Assembly (NCBI GenBank): GCA_902727935.1
Contig: CACVAX010000041.1
Coordinates: forward strand, 1 to 64,000
Length of the DNA: 64,000 nt
Direction of reading: 5' to 3'
DNA from: an uncultured Sulfurovum sp.
Lineage (GTDB): Bacteria; Campylobacterota; Campylobacteria; Campylobacterales; Sulfurovaceae
Below the pieces are notes generated by a model. That model saw only the letters and a list, made by a program, of their open reading frames with translations. It ran no database searches and had not been told where the DNA came from. Position 1 is the stretch's first letter. Every line of letters starts with the position of its first letter. The translations under genes were made by a program, and so were the position numbers. Positions 37,281 through 40,838 of this stretch are shown here, piece after piece.

Positions 37281-37289
37281 GGGGGGGGG
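37281..37289 (+). repeat. Homopolymeric G9 tract
   Basis: atggggggggggtt-type run (9 G) in AT-rich intergenic DNA. Confidence 0.95.
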
Positions 37290-37353: not shown

Positions 37354-40300
37354 TTAATCTAGGGGTAATCCCAATTTTTCTTTTATTCTTTTTATATCTT
37401 TTAATTTAGCATTTCTTTTAAGTCTTATTTCTTTAGTTTTATTTTTATAAATGGTATAAAATTTATTATTCTTTATGTAAAGAGGTGATTTATTATTAAA
37501 GGTATTTTTAATAATATTTTCTATTTCATCTTCATTATTTTTACGAAAAAAAATCTTTTTAAATAAACTAGTATTATTATTTATTTGTTTAAGTTTTAGA
37601 GAATCTAATACTACGTTTAAAGCATCTATGTGTATATCTACATCATTAAAAGTATTTATTTTTATATTATTTTTATTCTTTCGTTGGTATTTTATATACT
37701 TAAGAAGTATTAGGATTTTAGTATCTTTTTTTTTACCTTTGTAGTAAATTATATTTTTAAAATTTTCAATAACTTGCTCATTAAAAGCATCCAAGATTTT
37801 TATTATATTTATTTTATCTTTATGACTTTCATCATTATTATTTTTAATAATATGAGCTAAAATCACAATTACATCTTTTTTTAAATTTTTATTAGAAATA
37901 TCACTTTTAATTATATCAATCATGATTTCTGTAAACTTTTTACTATTAACATAATAAAGTGCCTCACTTACTTCTACTTTATTTGAATAATCAACTTTTG
38001 TATTTTGTAATAAATTAATGAGAGTAGTAAGTACGATATCATGATTAATATTAATTAAGCAAATTATTTTTATTAGTTCTAATATATATTCATTTTTTTT
38101 CTTTTCTTCTGCACCTTGTATAACCTCTAACCAATTTATAATAATGATTAAAAAATCATTATTATCTTTATCTATGGAGACTAATAATTTTGCAACCTCT
38201 AATTTATTCTCAAAATTGAGTCTCTCATCTTTTAAAAAAATTAAAAGAATTTTAATAAATTTTTTATGCTTTTTTCCAATAAAACTTGAGTCTATTACTA
38301 TTCTTAATCTTACAAGTATTTTTATACTTTCTTTTTCCATTAGTGATAATAAAAAATTAATAAATTCTTTATTGTTTTTTATTTTAGGTATTTTTTTTCC
38401 AATTTCAATTTTTGCCAATGTGTCAATAGTTTGATTTTTAATTAAATCTCTTACATCTAATTTCAAAATAATCCTATAAACTGGACTTAGCACTCTACTT
38501 ATTTGTATATCAGTAGAGCTTTCTTCCATTAAATTTTTAATAAATGTTATATATAAAGAGTTATATTTTTTGATTGAGACTAAAATTTTAGCCATATGAA
38601 CTCTCTCCTCAATGATGTAATCCTTATTTTGTATTAAATTTACTAAAATCTCTACAAATTTGTCATCATCTATATTTATAGACTTTAATACTTTAAATAT
38701 AACAGTCCTTACACTTATTGGCATAGTCTTCTTTTGTATTAATTTTATTAATAAAGTAGCTATTTCATTTTTATCTCTATTAATTTGAACCAATATTCCA
38801 ATTCCTCTTAATTTAGCATGATTAGTACTTAACTTATCATTTATTATTGACAATAAGGTATTCGTAATCTTTTTGTTATTTTTAAGAAAAAATAATTGCA
38901 TAATTTCTTTTTTTTCTAAGGGCTTAAATGTATTATTCATAATAAAACTTATGAGAAAATTAATGGTTGTATTATTTATAAGATGTTCTACCGTATGTAA
39001 TTTTTTTAATAAAAAGATATAATTTTTTTCATTCTCTAATACAAATGCTAACCAACAACTTAAATTATGATTAATAGCTAAGATCCTTTTTTCTATTAAG
39101 TTTTTATGTTGCATATTACTTATTAAATTTAAAATTAATAAAAACTCATAAAATCCACCTAAGTCTCTAGGTTCGCTCTTGATTTCTTCAAGTAACCATT
39201 CCTTATCCTGAATCAACCCACCCAAAAACATAAAAAAGAACTCCATATAAGGATAAAATTTATACTCTCGAATAACCTCACTTATCTCTTTTTTAGATAG
39301 CTTTGACACGTATAAAGCAGAAAAGTACTCTTGAAAGGTTAAGTGAGGAAACTCATAGTTATTCATTAGTGGATTTCGATGTTTTCTATCACTTTTTAAA
39401 AATCCTGTTTTTAGTACATAGTCAACAAAAAACTCTTTTTTCTCTTTGATAATACTTTTACCTAAAACGATATCTCGGTTTTTTAGTCCGTCAAATGCTA
39501 CTTTTCCTAAATAGTCAAATATTTCATCTTCTCTCTCTTGAAGATAAGTTGTATGGTTGGTTTCACTGTACTCTGAAAAGCTATACTTTATCACTTCATG
39601 ATAAAGCTCCGTCATAGTCATAGGAGAAATAATTAATTGATTATTTTTAGCTTTTTTTCTCCAAATTGAACAAATGATTTCCAATATTAAAGGAATATAG
39701 GCAATGTGCCTAATATTGATGTTTTGTTTCAAAAAAGTTTGTAGATTATTTTTATTGCTCTGCTCTTCAAAAAAATTATCTATATAGGCTGTTACATTCT
39801 CATCAGTAAATCCAATCGTTTCAAAAACTTCATTTACATCAAAATCACTTCTTCTACTCTGATAAGGTCGTGAAGTTATGATATAGTTTTGAAGATTATA
39901 CTTTTTTATCGTATTATGTAGTAGAAAGGTATCTGAAAGCTCATCATACCCATCAAACAAAAAAAGCGTCTTGAATGGGTTTATATCTATTCTTTTATGC
40001 TTGTATCTTTCTTGAAAATAGAGCTTTTTAAGAATGCTCTCTAACTCATCCTTTTTCCACTCTCTTAGTGCAATATAGAAAATATTTTGAAACTCACAAT
40101 AAAGCTCTCCTTTTGCCCATCTATAAGCGATATATTTACACAAAGTAGTCTTCCCAATACCTGCTTTTCCATAGATAAGGGCTTTGGAAGAGTTGAGTTT
40201 AGATGATTTTTGTATTAACTCCTCTATGGCTATTGGTTCTTTTGGTTTATATATCTCTTCATAAGAGTTTATGATTTTATCTCGGTCTAAAAATTTTGCT

Positions 40301-40482
40301 TTGTCTTTTATATCCTCTTCTTTTTCTTCTTTGATAATGGCAAGATTGACATAAATATCATCTATTTGCTTTTTGTCATCTTCGATTAATAGTGAGATAG
40401 TTTTAAAATGGTTTAGATAATACTTAGTACATAACTCTTTAAGTTCTTTTGCCCCTATTTTGAGGTTTATTGGTTTGGGTAG
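37354..40482 (-). CDS. NACHT-type STAND NTPase with C-terminal HEAT-like repeats; frame open upstream of the annotated start, no canonical start codon
   Basis: Walker A 'ALIYGKAGIGKTTLCKYIAYRW' read upstream of the track start, Walker B 'TLFLFDGYDEL', 'NYIITSRPYQ'; many ~30-aa helical repeats downstream. Confidence 0.85.
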   Translation of the reverse strand, partial: LPKPINLKIGAKELKELCTKYYLNHFKTISLLIEDDKKQIDDIYVNLAIIKEEKEEDIKDKAKFLDRDKIINSYEEIYKPKEPIAIEELIQKSSKLNSSKALIYGKAGIGKTTLCKYIAYRWAKGELYCEFQNIFYIALREWKKDELESILKKLYFQERYKHKRIDINPFKTLFLFDGYDELSDTFLLHNTIKKYNLQNYIITSRPYQSRRSDFDVNEVFETIGFTDENVTAYIDNFFEEQSNKNNLQTFLKQNINIRHIAYIPLILEIICSIWRKKAKNNQLIISPMTMTELYHEVIKYSFSEYSETNHTTYLQEREDEIFDYLGKVAFDGLKNRDIVLGKSIIKEKKEFFVDYVLKTGFLKSDRKHRNPLMNNYEFPHLTFQEYFSALYVSKLSKKEISEVIREYKFYPYMEFFFMFLGGLIQDKEWLLEEIKSEPRDLGGFYEFLLILNLISNMQHKNLIEKRILAINHNLSCWLAFVLENEKNYIFLLKKLHTVEHLINNTTINFLISFIMNNTFKPLEKKEIMQLFFLKNNKKITNTLLSIINDKLSTNHAKLRGIGILVQINRDKNEIATLLIKLIQKKTMPISVRTVIFKVLKSINIDDDKFVEILVNLIQNKDYIIEERVHMAKILVSIKKYNSLYITFIKNLMEESSTDIQISRVLSPVYRIILKLDVRDLIKNQTIDTLAKIEIGKKIPKIKNNKEFINFLLSLMEKESIKILVRLRIVIDSSFIGKKHKKFIKILLIFLKDERLNFENKLEVAKLLVSIDKDNNDFLIIIINWLEVIQGAEEKKKNEYILELIKIICLININHDIVLTTLINLLQNTKVDYSNKVEVSEALYYVNSKKFTEIMIDIIKSDISNKNLKKDVIVILAHIIKNNNDESHKDKINIIKILDAFNEQVIENFKNIIYYKGKKKDTKILILLKYIKYQRKNKNNIKINTFNDVDIHIDALNVVLDSLKLKQINNNTSLFKKIFFRKNNEDEIENIIKNTFNNKSPLYIKNNKFYTIYKNKTKEIRLKRNAKLKDIKRIKEKLGLPLD

Positions 40483-40838
40483 TTATGCACATTTCCAAAA
40501 TTATTATTGATTACTCCACCTTCATTATGTTGATGTTGGATACCTTGAATTGTACCATTGTTAATATATTTAGTTTTTTTAATATATTCTTGAAAAACTT
40601 CTTTCTTCTCTTCTTCACTTTTCATTTGTTTTATGTCATCAGGGGTGTTAATAATTGTAGCTTCAATAATATCTGTTATTTCCTCTATTTCTTCATTAGA
40701 TACATCTTCTAATTGTTCCAAAGCATTTACTTGTTTAGCAATATAAACACGTAGTACAAAATCCTTGGCACTCTCCATATAGGAAGTAAAAGCTTCCCAA
40801 AGTATTTTATGTAAAATTGAATCTGGTATTTCTATCAT
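40467..40838 (-). CDS. Small N-terminal-domain-like protein preceding the NACHT ORF
   Basis: 123 aa helical, ends in a Gly/Asn/Gln linker 'NNGTIQGIQHQHNEGGVINNNFGNVHNYPNQ'; stop TAA lies 6 nt after C_CCA_AAC. Confidence 0.75.
   Translation of the reverse strand: MIEIPDSILHKILWEAFTSYMESAKDFVLRVYIAKQVNALEQLEDVSNEEIEEITDIIEATIINTPDDIKQMKSEEEKKEVFQEYIKKTKYINNGTIQGIQHQHNEGGVINNNFGNVHNYPNQ

What the first reader, a model, noticed from the sequence alone, without database searches (positions are those of the whole stretch)
37354..40838. NACHT/STAND NTPase apparently made by -1 ribosomal frameshifting from an upstream 123-aa ORF
On the minus strand the NACHT frame is open from 40482, but the stretch from there to Walker A (GKAGIGKTT) contains no ATG, GTG or TTG. 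The only candidate, TTG at 40143, lies just after the P-loop and would destroy the NTPase. The upstream ORF ends ..H N Y P N Q stop, and its zero-frame codons TAC CCA AAC CAA TAA (40481-40467) contain an exact X_XXY_YYZ heptamer, C_CCA_AAC (40479-40473), 6 nt (C-AA-... CAA codon plus register) before the stop. A -1 slip on it gives CCC AAA CCA ATA AAC, exactly the NACHT register. A short hairpin CCTC-AAAATA-GGGG starts 7 nt downstream. The ORF1 tail (GIQHQHNEGGVINNNFGNVHNYPNQ) looks like a linker that would normally continue into a STAND module. If real, the STAND sensor:short N-terminal-domain ratio would be set by frameshift efficiency, a control mode I do not know to be described for bacterial NLR-like immunity. 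Caveats: the hairpin is weak, C_CCA_AAC is not among the best-known E. coli slippery sites, and a simple 1-nt indel (mutation or sequencing error) would look similar.
Basis: partly seen in the sequence, partly recalled or inferred. Interest (0 to 1): 0.78.

Follow-up and report, generated by a model that had tools for sequence, protein, structure and literature searches.

The report
Bacterial NLR-like gene spanning a frameshift
A bacterial immune-type NTPase (NACHT/STAND, the family of animal NLR sensors) has no start codon of its own and is probably made only when ribosomes slip back one base at the end of a small upstream gene; the same slip site and hairpin sit in front of the genome's only other clear NACHT gene, so this looks built in rather than a sequencing error.

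Summary
ORF1 (123 aa) ends TAC CCA AAC CAA TAA. The NACHT frame (1042 codons) lies at -1, opens 3 nt before an in-phase C_CCA_AAC, and has no ATG/GTG/TTG before Walker A. It is not an assembly indel. The genome's only other NACHT gene above Pfam's cut-off (64% identical) and a truncated relative in another genome of the genus keep the same -1 register, the same heptamer and a 5-bp GC hairpin 6 nt downstream (-9.4 kcal/mol; none of that kind elsewhere in the 64 kb). The start-less first 100 NACHT codons evolve under purifying selection (dN/dS about 0.09, dS about 1.1), and neither complete copy has a stop, so the frame is translated. Relatives show the same two modules as separate ATG-started genes, or (with an NB-ARC STAND) fused in one frame. 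Best explanation: programmed -1 frameshifting makes a 1161-aa adaptor-NACHT protein besides the free 123-aa adaptor. Weak points: the window's own hairpin is weak (-4.1), C_CCA_AAC is a poor E. coli heptamer, only three loci are known, no expression data. Initiation at the conserved AUA overlapping the stop (AUAA) is the main rival. No such NLR was found in the papers searched. New variant of a known kind.

The parts
40470..40838 (-). ORF1, 123 aa (stop TAA 40469-40467): N-terminal helical bundle (about residues 5-88) plus Asn/Gly-rich tail GTIQGIQHQHNEGGVINNNFGNVHNYPNQ; proposed adaptor/effector-associated domain
   Evidence: AlphaFold model mean pLDDT 72, helices 6-22, 26-38, 48-63, 75-88, tail pLDDT below 50; relatives L011, L002, L027, L043
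40844..40847 (-). Shine-Dalgarno AGGA of ORF1
   Evidence: sequence
40473..40479 (-). candidate slippery heptamer C_CCA_AAC, in phase with ORF1
   Evidence: identical in L011 and L013
40467..40469 (-). ORF1 stop TAA; with the preceding A it forms ATAA, whose ATA is in the NACHT frame (rival AUA start)
   Evidence: ATA conserved in all three loci
40452..40465 (-). hairpin CCTC-AAAATA-GGGG, 7 nt after the heptamer (-4.1 kcal/mol; GCCCC/GGGGC, -9.4 kcal/mol, in L011 and L013)
37354..40482 (-). NACHT/STAND frame, -1 relative to ORF1, 1042 codons open, no ATG/GTG/TTG before 40143; after a slip it contributes 1039 residues to a 1161-aa fusion
   Evidence: Pfam NACHT PF05729 E=1.3e-18, residues 101-239 of P0001; dN/dS
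40144..40170 (-). Walker A GKAGIGKTT
   Evidence: alignment A1

Best explanation
ORF1 and the NACHT frame are one gene. Most ribosomes terminate at TAA 40469-40467 and make a 123-aa helical adaptor with an Asn/Gly-rich tail. A fraction slip back one base on C_CCA_AAC, helped in the paralogue by a GC hairpin and perhaps by the stop codon close behind, and make a 1161-aa adaptor-linker-NACHT-C-terminal-sensor protein. Shown: the sequence, the -1 register, the absence of starts, the recurrence in three loci and purifying selection on the start-less part. Inferred: that slippage is how it is translated. More speculative: that the free adaptor and the adaptor-bearing NLR co-assemble through the shared domain or tail on activation, so slippage sets their ratio, as matching ORF1-tail and NACHT-N-terminus motifs suggest for the two-gene relatives.
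For: (1) Both NACHT genes above Pfam's cut-off in this genome, plus G030:C46, have the same junction CCCAAACYAATAA and the -1 register. L011's ORF1 is only about 34% identical to the window's, and DNA identity falls to 33-47% per 15-nt block just upstream of the junction while staying at 80-87% over the first 45 nt from the heptamer. (2) NACHT codons 1-100, which no canonical start can reach, have dN/dS 0.09 at dS 1.1 between window and L011, with synonymous changes from codon 8 on. Neutral drift at even 0.1 substitutions/site would leave about 20 stops in the window frame and 12 in L011; both have none. (3) Hairpin GCCCC-6 nt-GGGGC follows the heptamer after a 6-nt spacer in L011 and L013, -9.4 kcal/mol; no all-GC 5-bp hairpin occurs in either strand of the window. 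(4) The fusion architecture exists in one frame: L043 (G285) has an ORF1-like domain fused to NB-ARC-TPR. (5) One substitution (ATAA to ATGA) or a 1-nt indel would give a normal start or an in-frame fusion, yet none of the three loci has either.
Against: C_CCA_AAC belongs to the heterogeneous AAC class, which shifts less well in E. coli than C_CCA_AAG; it is, though, not among the three of 64 heptamers negative with the IS3 pseudoknot (PMC4066793). The window's own hairpin is weak. No dnaX-like upstream Shine-Dalgarno stimulator is evident. Only three loci in one genus carry it, one is a truncated remnant, and they share ancestry, so conservation is not independent. Searches of the family (176 genomes), a 400-genome sample of the order, plasmids and viral contigs gave no further case. 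No RNA or protein data.
Confidence: 0.7

Rival explanations
1. Termination-reinitiation at a non-canonical AUA: the ribosome ending ORF1 at UAA re-starts at the overlapping AUA (AUAA, like the common AUGA), giving a separate NACHT protein.
For: ATA at NACHT codon 4 is conserved in all three loci; the overlap geometry equals AUGA coupling; two-gene relatives with separate starts exist.
Against: AUA is a very poor start (general knowledge); PMC4066793 mentions only low-level AUA initiation behind an SD-like sequence, and there is no SD here. One change (ATA to ATG) would give a proper start and none of the loci has it. It leaves the heptamer and the L011/L013 hairpin as coincidence.
Confidence: 0.17
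2. A recent disabling indel or assembly error; NACHT is a pseudogene or the true frame is continuous.
For: A single-base change mimics it in one genome; the assembly is a draft (84.6% complete, 5.8% contamination); L013 is a broken remnant.
Against: The same register and junction occur in three separately assembled loci; 1042 and 629 open codons with dN/dS about 0.1-0.3.
Confidence: 0.06
3. An expression route I have not identified, such as an unusual start further into the NACHT frame or an altered transcript; the heptamer and hairpin are inherited by chance.
For: Few loci and weak E. coli-type signals; codon 8 is ATA/ATC/ATA.
Against: No SD precedes the AUN codons near the junction (sequence); there is no long homopolymer at the junction for transcriptional slippage.
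Confidence: 0.07

Closest known systems
Programmed -1 frameshifting of IS3-family insertion sequences and dnaX
   Same: Two overlapping frames in -1 register, X_XXZ_ZZN heptamer just before the zero-frame stop, downstream hairpin 4-10 nt away (PMC4066793)
   Different: Not a transposase or polymerase gene; C_CCA_AAC instead of A_AAA_AAG or C_CCA_AAG; hairpin 14-16 nt, just under the 17-nt lower limit used there; window copy weaker than the 7.6 kcal/mol rule
Bacterial NACHT (bNACHT) NLR-like proteins
   Same: Central NACHT module with an N-terminal module and a long C-terminal region (tripartite scheme in PMC12169576); close relatives carry SMEK or HNH N-terminal domains in one frame
   Different: N-terminal module is a small helical domain reached through a frame change; antiphage activity untested
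Bacterial amyloid signalling (BASS) pairs
   Same: Two-gene relatives L002 and L031 repeat a motif at the ORF1 C-terminus and the NACHT N-terminus (HYGSGDNVAGDK / HSGSGDNIAGDK; THYGSGDNVGRDKIV / THFGNGDNVGRDKIV), the arrangement described for BASS in PMC8086366
   Different: The window has one tail that would be present in both products; amyloid formation untested; assignment to any of BASS 1-10 not made; ORF1 is not shown to be a Bell domain
HetE-N (PF20701) / effector-associated domains
   Same: Related small helical N-terminal modules score against HetE-N (L031 ORF1 2.3e-5, L043 3.9e-4)
   Different: The window's ORF1 itself does not match

Membership tests
Programmed -1 ribosomal frameshift site | In-phase X_XXY_YYZ heptamer inside the overlap of the two frames | tested here: met
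   C_CCA_AAC 40479-40473
Programmed -1 ribosomal frameshift site | Downstream frame lacks its own start and is under protein-level selection | tested here: met
Programmed -1 ribosomal frameshift site | Stimulatory RNA structure at the right spacing | tested here: inconclusive
   Strong in L011 and L013 (-9.4 kcal/mol, 16 nt), weak in window (-4.1)
Programmed -1 ribosomal frameshift site | Site and register conserved between homologues | tested here: met
   Three loci in two genomes, one a remnant
Programmed -1 ribosomal frameshift site | Trans-frame product observed | not testable with these tools
   needs reporter assay or mass spectrometry
NACHT STAND NTPase (bNACHT/NLR-like) | NACHT domain with Walker A and B motifs | tested here: met
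   PF05729 67.9 bits, cut-off 26.7; GKAGIGKTT and LFLFDGYDE
NACHT STAND NTPase (bNACHT/NLR-like) | Antiphage or cell-death activity | not testable with these tools
   PADLOC gives only a weak mad8 match
BASS amyloid signalling pair | Matching motif at effector C-terminus and NLR N-terminus in neighbouring genes | tested here: inconclusive
   Seen in L002 and L031; the window has a single different tail in ORF1 and no second copy
BASS amyloid signalling pair | Motif forms amyloid | not testable with these tools
   needs purified peptide
HetE-N domain (PF20701) | Score over Pfam cut-off | tested here: not met
   Not met for window ORF1; L031 ORF1 25.1 vs 25 bits

The most novel reading that the evidence does not exclude
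An NLR-like immune receptor made only by programmed -1 frameshifting: one tail serves as the assembly motif of both the abundant free adaptor and the rare receptor, so the slip rate fixes their ratio, replacing the duplicated motif of two-gene relatives.
Probability: 0.4. Interest if true: 0.85.

Novelty: new variant of a known kind. Interest (0 to 1): 0.66.

Why it matters
Many bacterial NLR-like systems keep adaptor or effector and receptor in separate genes or fuse them. A frameshift that makes both from one gene would be a simple way to hold a low, fixed receptor-to-adaptor ratio. Gene callers miss such receptors or truncate them past Walker A (here at the TTG at 40143), so others may be hidden in genomes. 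It also gives a natural test of a C_CCA_AAC slip site outside E. coli. The papers searched here returned no NLR or STAND receptor made by frameshifting.

Tried and rejected
Assembly or sequencing indel: rejected by three loci. Dead gene: rejected by dN/dS and lack of stops, except L013, which is a remnant. Viral contigs: nothing. Plasmids: NACHT only at 22-27% identity in 13 records, ORF1 none. Further families of the order: two-gene (L031) or in-frame HNH (L032) forms, no further slip cases. Fold search of the ORF1 model in the PDB: no significant match, best E 4.5; PDB sequence search only chance-level. The literature search for CCCAAAC with slippery and frameshift found nothing, and the paper I wanted on initiation from all 64 codons is not held.

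Full report
What is there. On the minus strand ORF1 (40838-40467, 123 aa, AGGA Shine-Dalgarno) ends CAT AAC TAC CCA AAC CAA TAA. The NACHT frame is -1 to it, open from 40482 to 37354, and the first ATG/GTG/TTG is the TTG at 40143, beyond Walker A. NACHT is certain (PF05729, 1.3e-18). A slip on C_CCA_AAC would give ...HNYPN-PINLKIGAKELK..., 122 + 1039 = 1161 residues.

Not an indel. A search of the 34 genomes of the genus with the NACHT protein found a second copy in the same genome (G000:C22, L011, 64% identity over residues 1-436) and a fragment in G030:C46 (L013). All three have the same junction: window ACTACCCAAACCAATAAACCTCAAAATAGGGGC; L011 ACCACCCAAACTAATAAGCCCCAACATCGGGGC; L013 ACCACCCAAACCAATAAGCCCCAATATAGGGGC. 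In each the NACHT frame is -1 to an upstream ORF1 and has no canonical start before Walker A. In the whole genome only these two genes exceed Pfam's NACHT cut-off. A pattern search of 176 genomes of the family with up to 3 mismatches found only L011 and L013; the window itself has 4 differences from that pattern.

The frame is translated. Between window and L011 the first 100 NACHT codons have dN/dS 0.09 with dS about 1.1, and codons 100-230 have 0.25. Synonymous third-base changes with unchanged residues run from codon 8 onward. Neutral simulation at 0.1-0.55 substitutions per site always gave stops in both frames; none is present. L013 is a remnant: its ORF1 is deleted internally and its NACHT is cut after about 236 residues. 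If the shared junction goes back to the common ancestor, which is the simplest reading, this selection acted while the -1 arrangement existed. Gene conversion from an ATG-started copy cannot be wholly excluded.

The signal. In the window's long ORFs C_CCA_AAC occurs once in 14,704 in-phase positions and any X_XXA_AAN/X_XXU_UUN heptamer in 1.4%. Only two of 58 ORFs have any heptamer in the last five codons. In L011 and L013 a GCCCC/GGGGC hairpin with a 6-nt loop starts after a 6-nt spacer, -9.4 kcal/mol; 42-nt segments fold 3.5-3.7 sd better than shuffles. The window copy is CCUC/GGGG, -4.1 kcal/mol, z -1.6 for the 42-nt segment. No all-GC 5-bp hairpin with a loop of 3-8 nt occurs in the window on either strand; a 4-bp one like the window's has about a 1% chance at the permitted spacings. 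There is no covariation, because the stem hardly varies. By the E. coli survey in PMC4066793, AAC is a weaker A-site codon than AAG, but C_CCA_AAC is not among the three heptamers that failed with the IS3 pseudoknot. Its exact efficiency is not given in the text read. Low-efficiency slippage may be enough for a receptor needed in few copies (inference).

Relatives. Close NACHT relatives in the genus carry other N-terminal modules in one frame, for example SMEK (L009); an HNH example (L032) comes from another family of the order. L002/L004 (G011) and L031 (G211) have ORF1-like and NACHT genes as two ATG-started genes with matching motifs at the ORF1 end and the NACHT start. L027 (G090) has an ORF1 relative (about 50% identical) just before an ATG-started NB-ARC-TPR gene, and L043 (G285) has the two fused in one frame. 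So the domain pair exists as separate genes, as a single-frame fusion and, here, in -1 register. DNA identity between L011 and the window drops sharply just upstream of the slip site: the junction travels with the NACHT part and has been joined to two rather different ORF1s (34% identical) while keeping the register.

Function. The AlphaFold model of ORF1 is a helical bundle (residues 6-88) with a disordered tail, mean pLDDT 72, without a PDB match. Related ORF1s touch HetE-N, an N-terminal domain of fungal HetE described as an uncharacterised effector domain in PMC8195603. By analogy with BASS pairs (PMC8086366) and effector-associated domains (PMC8195603) I propose that the free ORF1 product is recruited by the ORF1 part of the activated fusion. 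This is inference.

Rivals. AUA reinitiation (AUAA) has the right geometry and a conserved AUA, but lacks an SD, uses a very poor start and ignores the heptamer and hairpin. Error or pseudogene is contradicted by the repeats and by selection. Overall I give 0.70 to programmed -1 frameshifting, 0.17 to AUA initiation, and the rest to error or unknown routes.

Novelty. Frameshifting in bacteria and NLR-like NACHT proteins are each known. Their combination was not found in the papers searched, which cover open-licence papers only. New variant of a known kind.

Noticed in passing
window 37281-37289: A run of nine G (C on the minus strand) lies between the NACHT stop and the carbonic anhydrase gene, the only G/C run of 8 or more in the window; possibly a phase-variable tract.
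   Followed up: partly
L011:2-841 and L013:3-446: Both the own-genome paralogue and the G030 remnant have the same AAA-type ATPase gene (MLTKNQLFEILLDWNYWNR...) just downstream, while the window copy has carbonic anhydrase there.
   Followed up: no
L002:3581-5452 and L031 upstream of 1501: Two-gene ORF1/NACHT relatives with a nearly identical GSGDN(V/I)AGDK / G(S/N)GDNVGRDKIV motif at the end of the first protein and the start of the second, an amyloid-signalling-like arrangement in this bacterial order.
   Followed up: partly
L043:1-1824: ORF1-like domain fused in one frame to an NB-ARC-TPR STAND protein in another family of the order.
   Followed up: partly
L013:842-1660: An unrelated 272-aa ORF on the opposite strand occupies the place where the NACHT frame of G030 is cut off.
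   Followed up: no
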